Position numbers and translations under genes: made by a program | Origin: Thermogemmata fonticola | Lineage (GTDB): Bacteria > Planctomycetota > Planctomycetia > Gemmatales > Gemmataceae | Length of the DNA stretch: 64,000 nucleotides | Assembly (NCBI RefSeq): GCF_013694095.1 | Contig: NZ_JACEFB010000001.1 | Span: forward strand, 186,001-250,000 | Reading direction: 5' to 3' | The notes under the pieces: model-generated | Told to the model about the DNA's origin: nothing | Seen by the model: only the letters and a program-made list of their open reading frames with translations | The model's database searches: none | Part shown: positions 23,246 to 38,390 of the stretch, one piece after another | Layout: each line of letters starts with the position of its first letter | Numbering within the stretch: position 1 is the stretch's first letter

Positions 23246-23584
23246 GGAAACCAGTACGAGACCGCCGATGCCCTCCGCGCCAACATGGACGCGGCCGAGT
23301 ACAAGCACGTCGTCCTCGGCCTGATTTTCCTCAAGTACATCTCCGATGCCTTTCGAGGAGCAGTACCCCAGCCCAGGCTCCAGGCCAAACGCTCGCAGGG
23401 GGCCGACCCGGAAGACCCGGTTGAGTACCAGGCTCTCGATGTTTTATATGGGTACCGCGGATAATCGCTCTCGAACCCCTGCAATCGGGCGAAAGAGCTG
23501 ATGATCGGCAAGATCGTGGACGATGCTGTGCTGGTCATCGAACAGGAAAAGCCGTTGGTGATCAGTCTGCTGGAAGGGATTTGA
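23246..23584 (+). pseudogene. Remnant of a second type I methyltransferase gene (hsdM)
   Basis: The segment encodes [20 protein letters not shown] and then [11 protein letters not shown] (23255-23350 region), the classic N-terminus of HsdM. It then degenerates and hits a stop at 23462-23464. A further piece reads KIVDDAVLVIEQEKPL (about 23512-23560), also HsdM-like, in another frame and ends at 23584. There is no catalytic domain. The HsdM family differs from the intact copy that starts at 23587, so this is a leftover from an earlier RM system. Confidence 0.7.
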
Positions 23585-23586
23585 AC

Positions 23587-27296
<3,710 letters not shown>

Positions 27297-27300
<4 letters not shown>

Positions 27301-30194
27301 CCCTCCCCAGTGAACGCCGCACCGTCCAGAACCCCTTTATCCGCTACGCCCAGGAGGCCGGCTGGACCTACCTGCCGCCCGAAGAGGCCCTGCGCCTGCG
27401 CGGCGGCGAAGAGAGCGCCGTCCTGCGTGCCGTGCTGGTGGCACAGTTGCAGCGCCTCAACCCCGGCGTGGTGGATTCAGTTGCCAAAGCCGAGGAGGTC
27501 ATTGCCCGCCTGCTGCGCGTGCGGCCGGATATCGAGGGCAATTTAGAGGCTTGGGAATACCTCAAAGGATTGAAAACCGTCTTCGTGGAAGCTGAACGTC
27601 GCGAAAAGAACTTGCGCCTGCTGGATTTGGCGCACCGGGAAAACAACGCTTTCCACGTCACCGATGAATTCATCTTTAGCAACGGCCGCTTCCGCATCCG
27701 CGCCGATGTGGTGCTGCTGGTGAACGGCATACCGGTCATCGTCGTGGAGACCAAGGCTGCCAGCCGCCTGGAAGGCATCGCCGAGGCGCTCGATCAGGTT
27801 CGCCGCTACCACGCCGAAGCCCCCGAACTGATGGCGCAGGCGCAACTCTTCACGCTCACTCATCTGATTCAGTTCTTCTACGGTCCCACCTGGAATCCCT
27901 CACGCAAAGCGCTCTTTAACTGGAAGGACGAACAGGCCGGCGATTTCGAAACCCTGGTTAAGACTTTCCTCGCGCCGCGGCGCGTGCTGCGAGTACTCAG
28001 CGATTACATCCTTTTTGTGCGCAAAGATGGCGAATTGAGCAAAGCTGTGCTGCGTCCGCACCAGATGCGCGCTACTGAGAAGGTCCTGGCCCGCTTGCAG
28101 GATCCCCAAAAACGCCGTGGCCTGATCTGGCACACCCAAGGCTCCGGCAAGACCTACACCATGATCACCGTGGCCAAGGCGCTTCTGGAAGACTCGCGCT
28201 TTCAAAACCCCACGGTGCTCATGATCGTCGATCGCAACGAACTGCAGCAGCAACTCTTCCAAAACCTGCAGGCCACCGGTTTGGGGCATGCGCGGGTAGC
28301 CGAAAAAAAAGAGCACCTGCAGCAGCTGCTTCGGCAAGATACGCGCGGGCTGATTGTCTCGATGATCCATAAATTCGACGATGCCGATGCCAATCTGAAC
28401 ACCCGCGCCAACATTTTCGTGCTCATCGACGAAGCCCACCGCTCCACCGGCGGCGATTTGGGCAATTACCTCATGGGCGCGCTGCCCAACGCCACCTTCA
28501 TCGGCTTCACCGGCACCCCGATTGACAAGACGAGCCACGGCAAGGGCACGTTCAAGGTCTTCGGCGGCGGCGACCCCGGCGGCTATCTGGACAAATACTC
28601 CATCCGCGAGTCCATCGAAGACGGCACCACTGTGCCGCTGCACTACCAGATGGCTCCCAACGACCTGATCGTCGACCGCGAGACGATGGAGCGCGAGTTC
28701 TGGGCCGCAGCCGAACTCGAGGGCGTGGCCGATGTCGAGGAACTCAACCGCGTGCTCGACCGCGCCGTCACGCTTCGCAACATGCTCAAGAACCCGGAGC
28801 GCGTGGCGCGCATCGCCGCCTTCGTGGCCGACCACTTCCGCCGCGTGGTTCAGCCCATGGGCTACAAGGCCTTCCTGGTGGCCGTGGATCGCGAGGCCTG
28901 CGGCCTGTACAAAGAGGCGCTCGACCGACACCTGCCGCCTGAATGGAGCCGTGTGGTCATCAGCCGCGGACACAACGACCCGCCTGCGCTCAAACGCTAT
29001 CACCTAAGCGACGAGGAAGAGGCCGCCGTGCGCAAGGCCTTCCGCAAGGCCGACGAGCCGCCCTACCTCCTCATCGTCACCGAGAAACTGCTCACCGGCT
29101 ACGACGCGCCCATCCTCTATGCCATGTACCTGGACAAACCCATGCGCGACCACGTGCTGCTCCAGGCCATCGCCCGCGTCAACCGCCCGTATGAGGATGA
29201 TTCGGGCCGCCGCAAGACCAACGGCCTGATCCTGGACTTCGTGGGCATCTTCGACAACCTGGAACGCGCCCTGGCCTTCGATTCCCAGGACGTGGAGGGG
29301 GTGATCGAAGGGCTGGAGGTGCTGCAGGAACACTTTGACCGCCTGATGACCCGAGCGCGCGCCGAGTTCTTGCCCATTGCTCAAGGACCCACCGCCGACA
29401 AAGCCGCCGAGTCCGCTCTGCTGCACTTCCGCGACAAAGAAGTACGCGAGGCTTTCTACCGCTTCTTTCGCGAATTGGAAGAGACCTACGAAATTCTCTC
29501 TCCCGATCCTTTCCTGCGGCCCTATCTGGAGGACTACCAGCGTCTGGTGGAGTTGTACCGCCTGCTGCGCAGCGCCTACGAGCCAGGCGTGCCAGTGGAC
29601 AAGTCGTTTCTGCGCAAGACCGCGGAGATCGTCCAGCAGCACACTGCTACCCGGACCTTGCGTGAACCGAGCGCTACTTACGAAATCGGTGCTGCAGCCC
29701 TGCTCGCTTTGATTCGCGAGGAGAAGCCAGAGACGGTCAAGGTCTTCAATTTGCTGCGCGAACTCCATCGCTTGATGGAAGAACAAGGCCGCCAACAGCC
29801 CTATCTCATCCCTATCGGTGAGCGAGCAGAAGCCATCCGCCAAGCGTTTGAGGCGCGCCAACTCAACAGTCAGCAAGCGCTGGCCGAACTGGAGAACCTG
29901 GTTCAGGGCCTGTGGGAAGCTGAGTCCCAGCGCAAGGAGAGCAATCTTTCCGCGCAAGCCTTTGCCGTAGCCTGGTGGGCGCGGGTGCAAAAGAGCATGA
30001 GTGCAGAAAAAGCCGAGTGCTTAGCCGCTGCCGTGGAGCAGATCTTCCAGCAATTTCCCCACTGGGCAGCCAGCAGCCACCAGGAACGGGAACTGCGCCA
30101 GGCGCTCTACAAGCCCCTGATCGAGGCCGGCGTTCAGGAGATGGTGGCCTGGGCCGACGAGATGCTCACCCTGCTGCGGAGGATTGCCTCATGA
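27297..30194 (+). CDS. hsdR: Type I restriction endonuclease subunit HsdR
   Basis: A 965-aa motor and nuclease subunit that translocates and cuts unmethylated DNA. The N-terminal PD-(D/E)XK nuclease shows RADVVLLVNGIPVIVVETKA (the Asp near 137, E-T-K near 151-153). SF2 motor motifs follow: Walker A TQGSGKT at about residues 280-286, DEAH at about 378-381, and FTGTPID motif III. The C-terminal about 300 residues are helical, as usual. The start overlaps the RAYT stop by ATGA and the stop overlaps the metallopeptidase start by ATGA. Length and motifs are normal, so the RM system looks functional. Confidence 0.94.
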
Positions 30195-30547
30195 TGCAAC
30201 CATCGCCGCTGGCTGAAGCCATCACCCGCGACCTGCTGATTGCTGAAGCATACACGTGGGCGCGGCGCATTGGCGTAGCCGATCGCCTGCAGGAAGTCCA
30301 CGTGCGGCCGATGCGTCGCAAATGGGCCAGCATCTCCACCCGTGGCAGGCTCACCCTGAGCAGCGATCTATTGAGGCAGCCGGCCGCCTTTCGCCGGGAG
30401 GTGTTGGTACACGAACTGGTGCACCTCAAATTGGGTCACGGTTTGCATAACGCGCTTTTCTATGCCTTGGTGCGAGCTTATTGTTCGAGCGAGGGGCAGG
30501 ACACGAAAGAAAAGCACCCTACCCTTGCGCTGAACCGAAACCATTGA
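30191..30547 (+). CDS. M48/YgjP-type (DUF45) metallopeptidase
   Basis: A 118-aa small metal-dependent hydrolase. The zinc motif HELVHLKLGH lies at about residues 74-83, after the KWASISTRGRLTLSS strand typical of DUF45/YgjP proteins. It overlaps hsdR by 4 bp, and such genes are commonly found next to hsdR. The role in the system is not established; processing or turnover of an RM subunit is conceivable. It is shorter than full-length YgjP (about 230 aa) and seems to lack the N-terminal portion, which is common for the RM-linked version. Confidence 0.75.
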   Translation: MMQPSPLAEAITRDLLIAEAYTWARRIGVADRLQEVHVRPMRRKWASISTRGRLTLSSDLLRQPAAFRREVLVHELVHLKLGHGLHNALFYALVRAYCSSEGQDTKEKHPTLALNRNH

Positions 30548-30608: not shown

Positions 30609-31727
30609 TTATTCCACCGTCGTAGCCAAGTTCTCTATCCAGCCTATCAAGCGGGCTTGTTGAGAGAGACGGGTAGGTAGCCCGATCCAGCGCCGGCTTT
30701 CCGCCGCCTGGGACTGCTCCGCAACAAGCAACGCCGGTGACTCGCCATCCAGATCACGACGCAACTGTGAAGCCAAGTCTTGCTCATCCAGCAGCGCACG
30801 CCAGGCTTCCGGATTAGGACTAAACAGTTTCGCAAGATCGTCCAGTTTTAATTCACTAACGGATGGTTTTTTCGATCCACCCACGAGCAGCTGCTCTAGC
30901 AACGCGAGACCCGGGAATGGCTCGCCAGGGGCAAAAGGGACTCCGTCGGAATTTTCGGGAGGAACTGGACGGGACCAAAGGCGAGAGGTAATTTCCCAGA
31001 CACCAGAACGTAGCGACGCCCAAACTAGGGCAATCACGTCCAGGCGACAGCGGGTGACCAGCACTTCCTCTTTTGCCACTGGAGCGTCTGGCGAAGTGGA
31101 CGACTTGGTAGTGTTGTTTGCAGGCGGTGGCTGTTCGTCACGTAACGGCAAAATCCGCACCGTGGCGGGGCATCCGCGTTTTAGGCCTTCGACCTCAGAC
31201 CATGATGCGATCTCTTGATACCGTTCGGCAAGTTCGCCCTGCAACTTGTGGATATCTAGCTCTACAAGATCGCGCAATCGCATACGTGGTAAGATGGGAA
31301 GGAGGATTTGACGTTCGGGCCAATAGCATACTAGTCGGCGTGTCCGGCGCCAAATCGGCGGGTCATTGTTACCCGTTTCAAACCGCGGAGCACCCTCTGG
31401 GACCCTCCATCTCCCTGCCATGTCGCTGACGACAGCGCCCATTTGCTGGAGATCACTTAGGACAATTTCGACAACTCCGGTGGGGAGGCAGAGTAGGCAA
31501 GCAATCTCGGCGGCGGTAGGTTGTTTGAGGACCGACACTGCTTCCTGAATGAACCCACGCAGGGGATTTTGCGGAGGCTGACCCTTGACGAGAACCGGGG
31601 TTTCATAGAGCACTACCTCAAGAGGCTCAGGGGCAATGGCAAGCACAAGTCGCCCCTTCGTCCCCTGAAGGGTTCCTTCGATCTGTCTAATCAGACGCTC
31701 GACGATTTTCCACCGTTGTGGTTGCAT
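30609..31727 (-). CDS. Winged-helix protein, third gene of candidate defence operon
   Basis: A 372-aa protein I cannot assign to a named family. Residues about 67-112 have a winged-helix pattern (TAAEIACLLCLPTGVVEIVL, then MAGRWRVPEG), suggesting DNA binding. The remainder is mixed alpha/beta with an acidic, proline-rich linker near residues 205-225. There is no signal peptide or membrane helix. The start lies only 3 bp after the helicase stop, so the two are cotranscribed. It may be the regulator or DNA-recognition subunit of the operon. Confidence 0.6.
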   Translation of the reverse strand: MQPQRWKIVERLIRQIEGTLQGTKGRLVLAIAPEPLEVVLYETPVLVKGQPPQNPLRGFIQEAVSVLKQPTAAEIACLLCLPTGVVEIVLSDLQQMGAVVSDMAGRWRVPEGAPRFETGNNDPPIWRRTRRLVCYWPERQILLPILPRMRLRDLVELDIHKLQGELAERYQEIASWSEVEGLKRGCPATVRILPLRDEQPPPANNTTKSSTSPDAPVAKEEVLVTRCRLDVIALVWASLRSGVWEITSRLWSRPVPPENSDGVPFAPGEPFPGLALLEQLLVGGSKKPSVSELKLDDLAKLFSPNPEAWRALLDEQDLASQLRRDLDGESPALLVAEQSQAAESRRWIGLPTRLSQQARLIGWIENLATTVE

Positions 31728-31730
31728 TTC

Positions 31731-34700
31731 TTACCCGCTCCAGCGAGTTTGCCATTTCTGCGGGACCTTCAAAAGACCACCACGTCCGTGTGCGAATACA
31801 AACAGAGCGTGGAGATGATCGCGCGTCTCAGCCTCGTCGCCAGTAACGTCGCTGCGCTTGCGGGCTAGTTCCACAGTGCTTCCATCGGCAATAACAAGGA
31901 GCAGGCAACGCGCTCGCGAGAACGCCACATTAAGCCTTTGACGGTTATCAACGAAGCCTAATCGCCCCTGCGAGTTGCTCCGTGTGCAAGTGAAGATAAT
32001 CAGATCCCGCTCCTGCCCTTGGAAGCTGTCCACAGTCCCGACATGAAGAATGCCCGCACTTAGCAGCTTGTTTAGCTTTTGATCTTTCCGGAGCAGGTCT
32101 CTGATCTTCTCGACTTGCCGGCGGTATGGTGCGATCACCCCAAGGGTGGGGACGCTAGACTCTTTGTCGTCCGCTTTGTCAACTTGGAACTCTGGTAGCT
32201 TGGCAAAAGCACGAAGAATGAACACAGCAAGCTCCTGCTCAAGCGAGTTGACATAACCCGTCCCTAGTCTCTTCTCCTGACGGTCGGGAAGCTGTTGTGT
32301 GTCGAGAACGAGGAGATTCGGACGGTCGGGAAGAAAAGCCGGTCTTGGCATCGTATGGTTGGCTACATGCGGGAAGTCGTGCAGGCGGCCACCGTAGAAC
32401 TGTTGGGAGACGAAAGCAGATATATCAGGATGCATCCGACCCTGGTGGTCGAGGAAAACGTAGCGACCGCTTTTCTCAAACGGCTCTTGCAACTCCTCGA
32501 AAAGCGAGCGAGTGATTACCTTGGGGTCAAGTCCCTCACGTCTCAAGCGTTTCTGCAATTCATCGTCGCTATAGGGTGGTAGCTGCTGGTGGTCACCGAC
32601 CAGCACCCACTTCTCGCCGCGGATCAACGGCACGAGCAAGCGGCGCGCCTCCTCCTTGCCGGCTTCGTCCACAATAACGTAATCGTACACCACGGAACGA
32701 AGCTCGCGGTGGGTGGCACACCCGATAGTGGTTGCACACACCAGATTGGCGTTGGCGATCAGCAGTTCGGAGAAGAATCGGGGGTTTTTCTGCAGAAATT
32801 CCAGCCAACGGCGTAGCAAGCGGACGCATTCCTCAGGACGAGTCCCTTGCGCCCGTAATTGCCGCCAGGCACGGACACGTCCTTCCTGACAGTTGAAATC
32901 TATGGGTAATTCCCGCTCCAGCGCCGGATGACATTCCCATGGACCGAGATTCAGCAATTCTCCATTTTGCAGCGCAAACGACCAGGATACCGCATCGCAA
33001 GCTGCACCATCTTCTAGGATGTCCCAAACCTGGCGATCCCGTCGCAAAGCCTGCCTGAATTTCTCGAGCTTCTTGCCTACTTGTTGTTCTAATTTTTCTC
33101 GGTACTCAGTGTTGAAGCAGTCGAGAGTGAAGCCTCGGAGGTGCTCAGGAATCCGGTGTGTGGAACCGACGCGATAGGGGGCGATACCTAGCTCCATTAC
33201 CAGGTTTGTTCCTCCTCTTGGCGTGACCAAGCGCTCCAGCACGTTGTCCACCGCGACGTGAGTTGGAGCGACGAGCAGCACCTTGAAGCCGGGATTCTTT
33301 CTGTGCATGCGAAAGAGTTGGCGGAGGATTTCGAGAATCACCGTGGTCTTGCCGGTGCCCGGCGGTCCCTGAATCAGCGTCATGTCCGGACCAAAAATGG
33401 CGGCCCGTACCGCCTCCTCCTGTTTTGCGGACAATGGCGTCAAAGGGGGAATCGGCAAGGGCGGCCACGGTGATGTGATCGGGTCGAGCTGCTCGGGGCT
33501 GCTCAGGATGGTCCGGAGGGTGTTCAGCGTCATGTCGTCTAGAGTCAATTCTTCGCCAACGATGCCTCGCTTCTCCGCCTGATTCTGCTGGTCCAGGTCG
33601 AGGAGATCTAGGGCGTTGTCGATGAGTCGCAATTGGGTATCCGGCAGGAATAACCGAATGTTCTCCCGTTCCTTATCCTCCGCTGCTGCACTATCACAGA
33701 CCCGCTCGATCAACGCCAGCCCGCGAGGGGAGTCACAACCGACATTCAAAACAATCTCTCCTACCCCATCCTCGGTGCCTTGGACGGAACGAATGATGAG
33801 CCGGGCGTAATCCTCACCCACTCGCAACTCCAGGGGATATCGATCCCAATGGATGCCCTCCGGATTTAGGCTCACCAGGCCGTCGATCCACTCTTTGACA
33901 GTTTCTTGCTTCTCGGGAATCAGCAAATAGTCTGGGCCCTCACGTTTTAAACAAGTCACACCAACTTCCAGTGTATCACGTTCCAACTCGCACACTTTCC
34001 TCCAACTCGCGATCCGTTTGGACAGCTCGGGAGTTTTGCCGATGAGCCACTCCTCGACGGTTTTGATCCGCGTTGCGATTTCCTGCTGTTGGCCTTGCAG
34101 CACCAGCAACTCGCGGATCAGCTCCGGTGCATTCCCAGCTAGCGGGGTTCGGCCAGGCACGCCTTCCTCCCACCGGGCCACGATCCGAGCAAAGGGCGAT
34201 AACGCTAAATCGGCTTTGCGGGTGCCAATAAGCATCCAATCTGAAATGCCTATCAGAGGTTTCTGGGGTGTCAATCGAATTTGGCACTGCAGCCCTTCCG
34301 GCACCGCGACGAGGACATCGGATTCCTGGCCCGTGACCTCGTAGAGATGGAGGCCACGGGTCATCGCTTGACAAAGCTGTTCAGGTGTGAGTTTGTGTTG
34401 TTGCAACTCCTCCTTGCTTCGCTCGGAGACACACAACCGGATGAAACCGGCATGCAATTCCCGTGGTGACCAAGTGATCCTCCAAGAGTGGTAGGCCCGT
34501 TCGGCGTTGGAGATTTGGACCAGCCAATTCTCACTTCGAACCTCTGTATCATCAGCTTGGGAGGCGGGTAACCAGACCGCGGAGAGCCGACACAGCAAAT
34601 CTACACTATAAGTCTTTCTCTCAAGTGAGGTTAATAGCCAATGTCCGACATCGGTGTTCTCAAAGGATGCTTGGTAGATGTTAAGAAGAATATCATGCGA

Positions 34701-35423
34701 TGGTAAAAATAACTGGAGGCCGGTCTTGCCTGTTTTCCGATGGGTCAACAGCTTGACGACGAAAACCTCTGTGTTACTTGCAAACAGGTCGTCGAGCACC
34801 TCGTCGGAAAAGGCGTCATCCTGCCGCAGTTTTTTAGACACATGCAGCACCTGTGTCCCCGCATCGATCACAGGTGGCTGCCAATTCTTGACGCAATCTT
34901 CGTACTGTTTGTTGATCTCTTTGATTTGGTCTAACAACCTCGTGGCATCACTAGTGAGGTCATCTTTCCTCAGTCCTCGATCGACGTGCCAAATGGCGCG
35001 CAACACAGCCAGCGGATGCCCCTTCGGAGGGCTTGCGTCGACTTTGAGGAGTCGCCAGTCTCTGGGTCCTGGTGGTTCTGGCTCATGGCTCAGGACGATA
35101 CGAAGTCGCCCCTGGTCAATCAGGCCGACTACTTTGCCACCGATGCCTCTGTCGGCTGGCTCTACCCCGACAACTTCCAGCCCTTGGTTGAGGCTAGCCA
35201 CCACACTACGGCGATCTTTCCCAATCTTACGTAGCATCTCCTCCTGATTCTTGAATATGAAGAGCCGGAACGGGCCGACGGACAACAGTGTCAAGGCCGC
35301 TACCCGTTCTTTCCGCAAGCGCTGCAATTCCTCGTACTGGGCGACAATGTCCGACCTTTTGCCACGTAAGAGGTATTGGTACAGGGGCAGATCGCGAAGC
35401 CCAGTCGTAGGCGTGTCGGTCAT
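31731..35423 (-). CDS. SF1 helicase (UPF1/DNA2/NAM7-like) with large N-terminal region
   Basis: A 1230-aa protein. The C-terminal half is an SF1B-type helicase: Walker A QGPPGTGKTT at about residues 683-692, Walker B DEAG at about 922, motif III GDHQQLPPY, motif V/VI VDSFQGQERDLIIF near 1131 and VAFSRAR. The first about 650 residues lack a recognised domain; they may bind nucleic acid or the partner proteins. The last few residues are GGLLKVPQKWQTRWSG. The start overlaps the stop of the TM-FGE gene by ATGA. The helicase family is frequent in defence loci, where it acts on phage nucleic acid; the role here is inference. Confidence 0.85.
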   Translation of the reverse strand: MTDTPTTGLRDLPLYQYLLRGKRSDIVAQYEELQRLRKERVAALTLLSVGPFRLFIFKNQEEMLRKIGKDRRSVVASLNQGLEVVGVEPADRGIGGKVVGLIDQGRLRIVLSHEPEPPGPRDWRLLKVDASPPKGHPLAVLRAIWHVDRGLRKDDLTSDATRLLDQIKEINKQYEDCVKNWQPPVIDAGTQVLHVSKKLRQDDAFSDEVLDDLFASNTEVFVVKLLTHRKTGKTGLQLFLPSHDILLNIYQASFENTDVGHWLLTSLERKTYSVDLLCRLSAVWLPASQADDTEVRSENWLVQISNAERAYHSWRITWSPRELHAGFIRLCVSERSKEELQQHKLTPEQLCQAMTRGLHLYEVTGQESDVLVAVPEGLQCQIRLTPQKPLIGISDWMLIGTRKADLALSPFARIVARWEEGVPGRTPLAGNAPELIRELLVLQGQQQEIATRIKTVEEWLIGKTPELSKRIASWRKVCELERDTLEVGVTCLKREGPDYLLIPEKQETVKEWIDGLVSLNPEGIHWDRYPLELRVGEDYARLIIRSVQGTEDGVGEIVLNVGCDSPRGLALIERVCDSAAAEDKERENIRLFLPDTQLRLIDNALDLLDLDQQNQAEKRGIVGEELTLDDMTLNTLRTILSSPEQLDPITSPWPPLPIPPLTPLSAKQEEAVRAAIFGPDMTLIQGPPGTGKTTVILEILRQLFRMHRKNPGFKVLLVAPTHVAVDNVLERLVTPRGGTNLVMELGIAPYRVGSTHRIPEHLRGFTLDCFNTEYREKLEQQVGKKLEKFRQALRRDRQVWDILEDGAACDAVSWSFALQNGELLNLGPWECHPALERELPIDFNCQEGRVRAWRQLRAQGTRPEECVRLLRRWLEFLQKNPRFFSELLIANANLVCATTIGCATHRELRSVVYDYVIVDEAGKEEARRLLVPLIRGEKWVLVGDHQQLPPYSDDELQKRLRREGLDPKVITRSLFEELQEPFEKSGRYVFLDHQGRMHPDISAFVSQQFYGGRLHDFPHVANHTMPRPAFLPDRPNLLVLDTQQLPDRQEKRLGTGYVNSLEQELAVFILRAFAKLPEFQVDKADDKESSVPTLGVIAPYRRQVEKIRDLLRKDQKLNKLLSAGILHVGTVDSFQGQERDLIIFTCTRSNSQGRLGFVDNRQRLNVAFSRARCLLLVIADGSTVELARKRSDVTGDEAETRDHLHALFVFAHGRGGLLKVPQKWQTRWSG

Positions 35424-37549
35424 GTCAATGGCTCCACCCCAAGGTCAACCGCAACCCGGAATCCTATAGGTGCGGTGAAGGCGCCGGTGATCGGTTCCAT
35501 CCCCACACGGTGAGCCAAATGGTAATCCCTCGGATTGAATTCGGGATTTCGTCCGCGAACGACACGCAAGGTCTCCTCCCAAAACTGCGACGATGGCTCC
35601 ATAACTGGATCGAACACGACCAAATTATTGTCGTAGGCCGAGCTGTTGAATGCGTCCTGAGTCCACTCCAGGATGTGGCAGATGTGGACTCCGTAGGGAG
35701 AGATGCATTCTTCCTTCCAATCTTTGCCTGAAGGGTAACGCCTTTCGTCCACGCTTCCCCTCGCTGCCTTTTCCCATTGGGCTTCGGTTGGCAGATGCCC
35801 TCCCTTGACTGCCCACTGGGCATATGCCTGTGCTGCAAACCACGTCACATGAATGGCATACGGGTGGTCCTGCGGTACATCGTCGGGCAAACCCTGGACC
35901 GGGAAGAATCCACGTTCGACCCGCAGGATACCTCCCTGGTTTTTAACCCATCGCTCAAAGGACTTTTGGGAGACCGGTTCAACATCGATGAGGTAGCTTC
36001 CCAAATGTACTCGCCGTTTTGGAGAGGTTTCTTTGGCATGATCAGCCCCACGGCAAAATGAACCAGCGACGATCAAGACCATGATCGCGCCGTCCGACTT
36101 ACGGCGAAATTGCATTGGCTTGCCCTTGGGTACTGGAAGGCGTTGCATCCCAAGGTCTTCAATGCGGCTTAGCAGCTTCTCCATAAGCTCCGACCGCTTC
36201 TCCATAAGCTCCGACCACAAACGCGCCAGTACGCGGTCGCGGGCTTGCAGGATTCGATCAGTTTGGACGGTGGTAAACCCGGCTTGGACATCGAGACGAC
36301 GGGTTTGTTGATCTAGCATGCGCAAGTCTTCGGGAGTTCCCAACCGCTCAGCAGCGTCACAAGCAGCAATCAACAAGGCTGGACGCTTCGCGGCAATCGA
36401 AAAGACGTATTGGAGATGGTGGCGGAACTGATTGACGCGATCGAGGTCATGGTACGCTCCACGCGATGTCAATGTAGGCTGTTTTCGCAATGACGGATCG
36501 CTGGCCAGCACAGCAGCGACTGCACCGATGGTCTCTGCGAGGCAATAGTCGTATTTCGGGTCAGGTGAGGAGCGATCTAGCTCAACCAGTCGGTTCAGGT
36601 GCTTCAGAAGCCAATCAGCGATAAAGTCGCAGGCTAACGGCTCTGTCTGCCAAGCCTGTAAGCCTCGATCGTTCTCTCCAAACACACGTTCGAGAACCGC
36701 TACCGCCCCTCGGCAACGATTGGGCATGACTGGTCCTAGGTTCCATTCCGTACTAGACAGTTCCACTCGCAGGTAAGGAAGACAGGCAGCTCCAATCCGA
36801 TCTGCCTGCATCAACAGCACCTGTTCGTGGGGTTCGGGTTGCGGGTTATCCGGTGAGGTTCCGCAACGAAACCCATACGGCGAGGGGGGCCTGTCTTCCT
36901 CGGTGAACAGGCTGGCCACATAATTGAGCCGCTGGCTGCCTCGCTCAAACCAGGCCGCGATGAGGGCGAACACGACTCCGGAGTAAATCAGAGACAGTAT
37001 AATACTCACCCACCCTGGCCAAGGCGATTCTTCTTCCCCAACGACTGAACGGAGGAGGGTTGTAAGTGGCGGCAAGGGAGTGGTAATTTGAATCAAACTG
37101 GTCCGAACGGCAGATTCCCAATCTCCGAGCCCCCACGCCGCCAGAGTAACCCCTGTTAGCAGGGCGAACAGAACCACCGACGTGAAGGGGAATTGAAGGA
37201 AGAACTTGAAGTAAGAAACAGGAACCGGTCGTTTCCCGGAACGCAGATCTTCATAAGCCGCCTCGGCCTTGAGGTAGCTCCAGACATAACAAAAACAGAT
37301 AGCCATCAGGAGGGGTAGAAACGATAAAAAGCAGGCGAGGACGACCTCTCCTCTCGAATCAAGCTTTGTTGACGTGTTTGGCAAAGCGAATGTCAAGAGC
37401 AAGGCAGCAAGAAACAACACGATGGCAGTAGCTAAATCGGTCAACAAGCTTCTCTTCAGCCACTGATACTTAGCGCGACGCCACCAGCGGCCTACCGTGC
37501 GACCAAAACGGTTAGAGAAAGTCTCAGGAAAAAGGGCTTGGTTTGGCAT
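35420..37549 (-). CDS. Four-TM protein with C-terminal FGE/sulfatase-modifying-factor-like domain
   Basis: A 709-aa membrane protein. Four hydrophobic helices lie at about residues 39-57, 68-92, 119-140 and 178-199. A helical cytosolic region follows (about 210-480, including a repeated SELMEKRSELMEK segment). The C-terminal about 220 residues have the formylglycine-generating-enzyme-like C-lectin fold: GGHLPTEAQWEKAARG, then HICHILEWTQDAF and a terminal GFRVAVDLG. The catalytic cysteine pattern of true FGE is not evident, so sensing or binding is more likely than sulfatase activation. First gene of a tightly packed operon. FGE-like domains are known in planctomycete conflict systems. Confidence 0.78.
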   Translation of the reverse strand: MPNQALFPETFSNRFGRTVGRWWRRAKYQWLKRSLLTDLATAIVLFLAALLLTFALPNTSTKLDSRGEVVLACFLSFLPLLMAICFCYVWSYLKAEAAYEDLRSGKRPVPVSYFKFFLQFPFTSVVLFALLTGVTLAAWGLGDWESAVRTSLIQITTPLPPLTTLLRSVVGEEESPWPGWVSIILSLIYSGVVFALIAAWFERGSQRLNYVASLFTEEDRPPSPYGFRCGTSPDNPQPEPHEQVLLMQADRIGAACLPYLRVELSSTEWNLGPVMPNRCRGAVAVLERVFGENDRGLQAWQTEPLACDFIADWLLKHLNRLVELDRSSPDPKYDYCLAETIGAVAAVLASDPSLRKQPTLTSRGAYHDLDRVNQFRHHLQYVFSIAAKRPALLIAACDAAERLGTPEDLRMLDQQTRRLDVQAGFTTVQTDRILQARDRVLARLWSELMEKRSELMEKLLSRIEDLGMQRLPVPKGKPMQFRRKSDGAIMVLIVAGSFCRGADHAKETSPKRRVHLGSYLIDVEPVSQKSFERWVKNQGGILRVERGFFPVQGLPDDVPQDHPYAIHVTWFAAQAYAQWAVKGGHLPTEAQWEKAARGSVDERRYPSGKDWKEECISPYGVHICHILEWTQDAFNSSAYDNNLVVFDPVMEPSSQFWEETLRVVRGRNPEFNPRDYHLAHRVGMEPITGAFTAPIGFRVAVDLGVEPLT

Positions 37550-37779: not shown

Positions 37780-38390
37780 TGAAAGCCACCGCCTCCTCCT
37801 CATCGCACCCCAAACGGCGTTAGCAACCCAGCCAAGCAAACAGACACTCCACCACCCCACCATGAGGCAGGCTGACCCCGCTTTGCACCCCCCTGCGGTC
37901 GACGCACAAGGTCAAGCCACCAACCCCACTGCACCCGCACGTCACCCACGATGCCCTCGTCTCCACCCTCGGCCCCCATGCCAGGGCAAACTTGCCGCCG
38001 GTGACGTCCGGGATGCCTACGCTGTACACCACGACCACCAGCCACAATCCCAGGGTGCCCACCTCAATACCCCGCTTGCGGGGTCGGGGGATGTCTGGAC
38101 ACTTTGGCGGTCGATGATCCCGGCGCTAGGGCTGGGGAGACGACCAGCCTTTTGGCAGACCTGCCCTACCAGCACAGCGTTGATCGGCTCCTTCAGTCCG
38201 CTGTCCGTCCAGCGACGGAAGTAGCCAGAGACGGTCTGCCCAGGCGGGAAGGCTGTGGGCAAAATTCGCCAAGGGCAGCCGGTGCGGATGACGGAGAAGA
38301 TGGCGTTGACGATGTGGCGTGGTGACCATGTGCGTGGGCGTCGATGTTTGGATGTGGGAGGGATGGGTTGCAGGGTTGGCCATGTGGTAG
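37780..38390 (-). pseudogene. Decayed IS5-family transposase
   Basis: Minus-strand translation gives RHIVNAIFSVIRTGCPWRIL, then FPPGQTVSGYFRRWTDSGL and SAGIIDRQSVQTSP, all hallmarks of the IS5-group DDE transposase N-terminal half. The frame then breaks near 38050 and resumes with TLGLWLVVVVYSVGIPD, with the intervening KKVKGRKRHILVD-type block deleted. Many substitutions and no intact frame, so the element is dead. Terminal inverted repeats were not identified. Confidence 0.75.

What the first reader, a model, noticed from the sequence alone, without database searches (positions are those of the whole stretch)
30609..37549. Three-gene operon (4-TM/FGE-like protein, UPF1-like helicase, winged-helix protein): candidate undescribed defence system
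Seen: three genes on one strand joined by a 4-bp ATGA overlap and a 3-bp gap, so they work together. The products are a 4-TM protein with a C-terminal FGE-like domain lacking evident catalytic cysteines, a 1230-aa SF1 helicase with about 650 unassigned N-terminal residues, and a winged-helix protein. The operon sits in a defence island next to a type I RM operon and a decayed IS. Known: SF1 helicases and FGE-like domains both recur in conflict systems. Inference: a membrane-anchored sensor coupled to a nucleic-acid-processing helicase, with the winged-helix protein as regulator or DNA binder. The combination is not one I can name.
Basis: partly seen in the sequence, partly recalled or inferred. 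Interest (0 to 1): 0.82.

Follow-up and report, generated by a model that had tools for sequence, protein, structure and literature searches.

The report
Mokosh-like helicase operon with membrane protein
A rare three-gene operon of Gemmataceae bacteria, found mostly inside antivirus gene clusters, looks like the helicase-plus-adaptor half of the known Mokosh phage-defence system, but with the usual DNA/RNA-cutting partner replaced by a membrane protein and with a helicase module that has been swapped between lineages.

Summary
In detail: genes at 37549-35420, 35423-31731 and 31727-30609 (-), joined by ATGA and a 3-bp gap. The same order recurs in three other Gemmataceae; a fifth is decayed and lacks gene 1. 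I found no trio outside the family. It is patchy (5 of 95 genomes), low in GC3, and beside RM, CRISPR or Hma/DISARM-like genes in three of four non-decayed loci. The trio has no name in PADLOC, Pfam or NCBIfam, but it is not an orphan. The helicase's best PADLOC match is Mokosh MkoA (helicase part only), and gene 3's N-terminal ~110 residues are homologous to MkoB's pre-nuclease domain. The kinase and PLD nuclease that define Mokosh are absent; gene 1 (4 TM, FGE-like domain without the catalytic cysteines) takes the third place. The 'unassigned' helicase N-terminus holds about three tandem copies of one domain. The middle copy exists as two ~20%-identical types whose distribution conflicts with the helicase core's history, so it looks swapped, like a recognition module. 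Best reading: a Mokosh-like helicase/wHTH chassis with a membrane partner, probably anti-MGE. Defence activity is inferred. A related helicase+wHTH pair in non-defence synteny is the main caveat.

The parts
35420..37549 (-). Gene 1: 709-aa membrane protein, candidate effector or membrane tether
   Evidence: ORF; 4 TM; PF03781. Same protein in G001, G024 (broken) and G090, none of the other 145 relatives apart from a spurious TM match
36890..37549 (-). 4-TM region (residues 1-220); basic N-terminus, C-terminal part predicted cytoplasmic by the positive-inside rule
36125..36889 (-). conserved middle region (residues 221-475), no family match
35423..36124 (-). FGE-like (C-type lectin fold) domain, residues 476-709, without the catalytic cysteine pair of FGE
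31731..35423 (-). Gene 2: 1230-aa UPF1/MkoA-like SF1 helicase
34914..35318 (-). N-terminal repeat R1 (residues 36-170)
   Evidence: R1-R3 hhalign score 52.5, best of 80 shuffles 18.5
34488..34913 (-). repeat R2 (residues 171-312): swapped module with two allelic types (window+KatS3mg105 vs IIL30+SKYG125)
   Evidence: R2-R3 score 34.0, null max 24.6
34104..34487 (-). repeat R3 (residues 313-440); fold weakly RelE/BrnT/colicin E5-like
33459..34103 (-). stalk and 1B barrel (residues 441-655), like Sen1/UPF1/SETX
   Evidence: (Z 7.1-7.4)
31854..33458 (-). SF1 helicase core (residues 656-1190) with intact Walker A, DEAG and RMHP motifs
30609..31727 (-). Gene 3: 372-aa wHTH partner of the helicase
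31374..31727 (-). MkoB-N-like beta + wHTH domain (residues 1-118)
23581..30547 (+). flanking type I RM operon (HsdM, HsdS, HsdR) and YgjP-like peptidase: context, not part of the trio
37820..38383 (-). remnant of an IS4/IS5-type transposase upstream of gene 1: context
   Evidence: (DUF4096)

Best explanation
The trio is a lineage-restricted variant of the Mokosh-type helicase/wHTH chassis, working against phages or other mobile DNA. Shown: conserved three-gene unit; helicase core of MkoA type with intact motifs; gene 3 N-terminus homologous to the MkoB N-terminus; no kinase and no PLD nuclease; gene 1 in the third place; repeated helicase N-terminus with a swapped middle module; defence-rich neighbourhoods. 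Inferred: the helicase N-terminal repeats recognise the invader's nucleic acid or nucleoprotein, R2 setting specificity; gene 3 couples the ATP-driven helicase to its partner; gene 1, anchored by 4 TM with the FGE-like domain in the cytoplasm, carries out the response at the membrane (permeabilisation or growth arrest) in place of the PLD nuclease.
For: Helicase best PADLOC hit MkoA, E 1.7e-111, residues 633-1185. Gene-3 HMM over 95 Gemmataceae genomes finds, outside the trio, only one protein (E 6.8e-4), directly 3' of an MkoA-like helicase in G062. That G062 wHTH and the one in Azospirillum match PADLOC MkoB N-terminus (E 6.8e-12, 9.2e-8). Profile comparison gene 3 vs MkoB-N: score 33.7, null max 17.6; without the bridging sequences 24.0, null max 19.2. 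Third partner varies in relatives: PLD in G062 and Pontibrevibacter, CorA-like 2-TM protein in Azospirillum. R2 swap: quartet sites 20:1:0 in R2 vs 3:5:7 in the core, Fisher p 4e-6. Defence neighbours: RM; HmaB-like MTase, HmaA/DrmD-like helicase and Cas1-Cas4 in G024; type I-G CRISPR in G090. In a comparison set, 10 neighbours of the non-defence pair gave one weak transporter hit. GC3 0.56-0.62, hsdS 0.56, other long genes 0.65-0.86.
Against: No activity test exists. The SKYG125 copy has no defence gene within 5-7 kb. A related helicase+wHTH pair in Gemmataceae lies in ordinary chromosomal synteny. Trio helicase placement among deep lineages differs between trees, and holding all Mokosh-like helicases as one clade was rejected (p-AU 0.019). 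Without bridging sequences the gene 3-MkoB match is modest. Gene 1 as effector rests on its position and TM segments only.
Confidence: 0.5

Rival explanations
1. Reversed roles: the cytoplasmic FGE-like (C-type lectin fold) domain of gene 1 is a membrane-anchored sensor, and the helicase with gene 3 is the effector that unwinds or remodels invader nucleic acid.
For: FGE/CLec domains are proposed antigen sensors in conflict systems (PMC10907252), and FGS domains occur in planctomycete conflict systems (PMC7159879). The domain is conserved but lacks catalytic cysteines.
Against: No diversification: no RT in the genome, no second copy of the 3' end, and the FGE domain is among the more conserved parts of gene 1 (64-68% vs 36-60% in the TM part). 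The part that looks exchanged is in the helicase.
Confidence: 0.25
2. Not immune: a helicase/wHTH nucleic-acid or transcription-related machine with a membrane regulator, which sits in islands merely because they are permissive sites.
For: A related helicase+wHTH pair, with altered helicase motif II, lies in ordinary synteny in many Gemmataceae; its wHTH matches gene 3 better than MkoB does (score 49.0 vs 33.7).
Against: The trio itself is patchy (5 of 95), decays, and lies near RM, CRISPR and Hma/DISARM-like genes. Module swapping fits conflict better than housekeeping.
Confidence: 0.2
3. A degenerate or orphan set: gene 1 is an unrelated passenger next to a helicase/wHTH pair.
For: The trio is rare; gene 1 is missing in RYN_437 and broken in KatS3mg105.
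Against: ATGA coupling and the order kept at 42-66% identity in several genera. Gene-1 HMM finds it only in trio genomes, apart from one short TM match to an ABC permease.
Confidence: 0.05

Closest known systems
Mokosh type I (MkoA + MkoB)
   Same: UPF1-like helicase core of the same family (PADLOC MkoA E 1.7e-111); wHTH domain homologous to the MkoB N-terminus; helicase gene directly followed by the wHTH gene
   Different: No Ser/Thr kinase and no PLD nuclease; three tandem N-terminal repeats instead; extra 4-TM FGE-like protein encoded first in the operon
Three-gene Mokosh-like loci with separate wHTH and PLD (G062 contig 29; Pontibrevibacter plasmid NZ_CP049815)
   Same: No kinase found in the G062 helicase; helicase gene followed by a 365-425 aa wHTH protein; G062's helicase is the nearest non-trio row by path in both trees
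   Different: PLD nuclease as third gene, sigma54-type ATPase nearby, no TM-FGE protein, unrelated helicase N-terminus
Azospirillum lipoferum AZO_p1 locus (kinase, helicase, wHTH, CorA-like)
   Same: Helicase + wHTH with a membrane protein instead of PLD, next to brxL/pglZ-like genes
   Different: Has a separate kinase gene; the membrane protein is a CorA-like 2-TM protein, unrelated to gene 1
FGE/CLec (FGS) sensors of conflict systems and DGR targets
   Same: C-terminal FGE-fold domain without enzymatic cysteines; TM forms exist
   Different: No reverse transcriptase or template repeat; partner is an SF1 helicase rather than STAND or MoxR-vWA
UPF1/IGHMBP2/Sen1 helicases
   Same: Same core and 1B/stalk arrangement
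   Different: N-terminal repeats absent from those; operon partners

Membership tests
Mokosh type I | MkoA-type UPF1-like helicase | tested here: met
   PADLOC MkoA E 1.7e-111 over residues 633-1185 only
Mokosh type I | Ser/Thr kinase domain on MkoA (annotated in the canonical cyanobacterial and Arthrobacter loci read here) | tested here: not met
   No kinase match in gene 2 (Pfam); residues 36-440 are a different repeated domain
Mokosh type I | PLD-family nuclease (MkoB C-terminus) | tested here: not met
   No PLD in genes 1-3; no PF13091 match within 50 kb of the trio in four genomes
Mokosh type I | MkoB N-terminal wHTH domain | tested here: met
   Transitive HMM matches; profile scores above all 80 shuffles
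Mokosh type II (MkoC) | helicase and PLD in one protein | tested here: not met
Formylglycine-generating enzyme | FGE fold domain | tested here: met
   PF03781 E 4.5e-25; FGE structures matched
Formylglycine-generating enzyme | catalytic Cys-x4-Cys near the C-terminus | tested here: not met
   No Cys after residue 624, and no C-x4-C in the three aligned FGE domains
Diversity-generating retroelement target | reverse transcriptase and template repeat in the genome | tested here: not met
   No PF00078, no second copy of the gene-1 3' end
Anti-phage defence system | protection against phage | not testable with these tools
   context only

The most novel reading that the evidence does not exclude
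A membrane-acting branch of Mokosh-like immunity. The helicase carries exchangeable recognition repeats (possibly of RelE/BECR fold) in its N-terminus that are swapped between strains, as HsdS target domains are, and on recognition it signals through the MkoB-N-like wHTH adaptor to a 4-TM pseudo-FGE protein that disables the membrane.
Probability: 0.3. Interest if true: 0.8.

Novelty: new variant of a known kind. Interest (0 to 1): 0.6.

Why it matters
It suggests that the helicase/wHTH half of Mokosh is a general chassis to which different effectors (PLD nuclease, CorA-like, TM-FGE) are attached, and it points to a modular, swapped sensing region in a UPF1-like bacterial helicase. That makes two open questions testable: what MkoA-type helicases recognise, and whether an effector exchange changes the mode of immunity.

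Tried and rejected
DGR target: rejected (no RT, no template copy). Active FGE or EgtB: rejected for lack of catalytic cysteines and weak, partial NCBIfam matches. Hidden PLD nearby: none. Viral or plasmid spread: no N-terminus match in IMG/VR or in the phage records, no gene-1 match in plasmids. AlphaFold of gene 3 (mean pLDDT 39.8) and of the helicase N-terminus (52.2) is poor, so fold matches are leads only; RelE/BrnT/colicin E5-like hits for R3 reach Z 4.9-6.6, inside the range the tool calls common. Foldseek with the N-terminus: nothing under E 0.001. Homology of R1-R4 to the N-termini of the G062, Pontibrevibacter and Azospirillum helicases: none (its whole-N-terminus comparison failed and is not used). 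Gene 3's C-terminal 250 residues against the partner wHTH proteins: none (score 11.5, null mean 13.8). Two-row R2 profiles alone do not match R1 or R3, so R2 as a third copy rests on the pooled profile. G137 hit of the gene-1 HMM is an ABC permease. Paper search for 'PLuB' gave only unrelated papers. 'Mokosh' papers in the library mention the system, but I found no three-gene TM-FGE form in them.

Full report
OBSERVATION. The three ORFs are exactly where stated. Gene 1 (35420-37549, -) stops inside the ATGA that starts gene 2 (31731-35423, -); gene 3 (30609-31727, -) starts 3 bases after gene 2. Pfam gives FGE-sulfatase for gene 1 (4.5e-25) and AAA_11/AAA_12 for gene 2 from residue 664 on; gene 3 has only sub-threshold matches. 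NCBIfam and PADLOC name no complete system; gene 2's best PADLOC hit is Mokosh MkoA (1.7e-111) over residues 633-1185 only, and genes 1 and 3 have none.

DISTRIBUTION. A scan of 84,980 species genomes with the helicase N-terminus gives only four loci, all Gemmatales/Gemmataceae: KatS3mg105, SKYG125, Gemmata sp. IIL30, RYN_437; with the window this makes five. HMMs of gene 3 and of the helicase N-terminus find only the window's own copy in 392 genomes drawn across the phylum; gene 3 is in 5 of 95 family members. Nothing in IMG/VR. IIL30 and SKYG125 are intact with the same order and near-identical junctions; KatS3mg105 has frames broken in genes 1 and 2; RYN_437 has a broken helicase, an apparent transposase upstream and no gene 1. 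Gene 1's N-terminal HMM finds it only in the four genomes that keep gene 1, apart from a short TM match to an ABC permease.

CONTEXT. Window: type I RM (HsdM, HsdS, HsdR) and a YgjP peptidase, gene 3 being about 60 bp from the latter's end. KatS3mg105: HmaB-like methylase, HmaA/DrmD-like helicase and a HEC-01A/AriA-like ATPase on one side, Cas1-Cas4 and Cas5b on the other. IIL30: Cas3g, Cas8g, Cas56g upstream and a weakly TIR-effector-like gene 146 bp downstream, with a tyrosine integrase further on. SKYG125: no defence gene in the flanks held. So three of four; the sample is small and the loci were not compared with random loci. As a small comparison, ten neighbours of two loci of the related non-defence pair gave one weak transporter hit. 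The trio's GC3 (0.56-0.62) is, with hsdS, the lowest among long genes of the window.

RELATION TO MOKOSH. The gene-3 HMM, run over 95 genomes, found outside the trio only one protein, E 6.8e-4, in G062, lying directly 3' of an MkoA-like helicase and followed by a PLD protein. That G062 protein matches PADLOC's MkoB over its first ~120 residues (6.8e-12), and an HMM of seven canonical MkoB N-termini also reaches it (1.8e-5 among 2,102 ORFs). Profile-profile: gene 3 N-terminus vs MkoB-N 33.7 against a shuffled maximum of 17.6; without the bridging proteins 24.0 against 19.2. The remaining 250 residues of gene 3 show no detectable relative. Canonical Mokosh loci read here carry a kinase-helicase followed by a PLD protein. 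The trio has neither kinase nor PLD. By those defining parts it is not Mokosh; it shares its chassis. The third component varies elsewhere too: PLD in G062 and a Pontibrevibacter plasmid, each with a separate wHTH gene of 365-425 aa, and a CorA-like 2-TM protein in an Azospirillum plasmid beside BrxL and a pglZ-like gene.

TREES. Tree 1 puts the trio with G062 and Pontibrevibacter (93/96), apart from IGHMBP2-type helicases (95/93). Tree 2, with the Gemmataceae pair added, puts the trio as its own deep lineage. In both the nearest non-trio row by path is G062. The trio falls inside neither canonical MkoA nor IGHMBP2; deeper order is unresolved, and one clade of all Mokosh-like helicases was rejected (p-AU 0.019). 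Unrooted trees with long branches: treat with caution.

HELICASE N-TERMINUS. Residues about 36-440 contain repeats: R1 vs R3 52.5 (null max 18.5), R2 vs R3 34.0 (24.6), R1 vs R2 26.5 (18.2); segment R4 (440-600) matches none. R1-R3 is firm; R2 as a third copy depends on pooling both R2 types. Residues about 480-600 resemble the 1B/stalk of UPF1, Sen1 and SETX (Z 7). R3's model resembles RelE/BrnT/colicin E5 RNases (Z up to 6.6), a lead only. R2 is special: window vs KatS3mg105 55%, IIL30 vs SKYG125 47%, all cross pairs 20-23%, while in the core KatS3mg105 and IIL30 are closest (79%). Quartet sites are 20:1:0 in R2 against 3:5:7 in the core (Fisher p 4e-6). R3 leans the same way more weakly (8:1:1). 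The plain reading is exchange of a module between lineages, as seen for specificity domains; that R2 determines specificity is inference.

GENE 1. Four TM peaks, a basic N-terminus and an acidic third loop suggest a cytoplasmic FGE-like domain (positive-inside rule). The FGE domain keeps the core of the family but has no Cys after residue 624, so the catalytic Cys-x4-Cys of FGE (established knowledge) is absent. No RT and no second copy of its 3' end: not a DGR target. FGE/FGS domains are proposed as sensors or effectors in conflict systems, including planctomycete ones (PMC10907252, PMC7159879).

MECHANISM. Most likely (0.5): the helicase recognises invader nucleic acid or nucleoprotein through its N-terminal repeats; the wHTH protein couples it to gene 1; gene 1 acts at the membrane in place of the PLD nuclease. 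Chassis homology, absence of kinase and PLD, and the R2 swap are shown; sensing, coupling and membrane action are inferred. The strongest counter-evidence is a related helicase+wHTH pair in ordinary synteny in many Gemmataceae, with altered motif II in those checked: the pairing alone does not prove immunity.

VERDICT. A new, rare variant of a known kind, better placed than 'undescribed', with one unexpected feature (the swapped repeat) that deserves a bench test.

Noticed in passing
L085 7469-11385; also L086, L087, L091, L094; helicase alone called in L089, L092, L093: A second helicase + wHTH pair recurs in Gemmataceae among ordinary chromosomal genes; motif II is altered in those checked (e.g. 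VEDAE) while Walker A is kept. The helicase groups with the G062 Mokosh-like one (100/98). It may be a domesticated, partly inactive relative of Mokosh.
   Followed up: partly
L032 5057-13509 (Azospirillum lipoferum AZO_p1): SpoIIE/PP2C-kinase, MkoA-like helicase, MkoB-N-like protein and CorA-like membrane protein, next to brxL and a pglZ-like gene: possibly a Mokosh-like locus with a CorA-like partner instead of PLD.
   Followed up: partly
L041 8547-10346 and L045 10498-11919: Both helicase-wHTH-PLD loci have a sigma54-type AAA ATPase gene nearby (Pfam-checked in L045, read from sequence in L041), perhaps their regulator.
   Followed up: no
L030 580-2097 and 2302-5449: RYN_437 copy: transposase-like ORF upstream, helicase split over several frames, gene 1 absent.
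   Followed up: partly
L023 16460-17431: Gene 146 bp downstream of gene 3 in Gemmata IIL30 weakly resembles TIR effectors in PADLOC (1.6e-6); no Pfam match.
   Followed up: no
window 26626-27300: ORF overlapping both hsdS and hsdR, no Pfam match at 1e-3; the sequence reads like a REP-associated tyrosine transposase (inference).
   Followed up: no
L049 2842-9256 (Polaromonas plasmid): Large Mokosh-type helicase plus MkoB-like protein embedded between pglX and pglZ of a BREX-1 operon.
   Followed up: no
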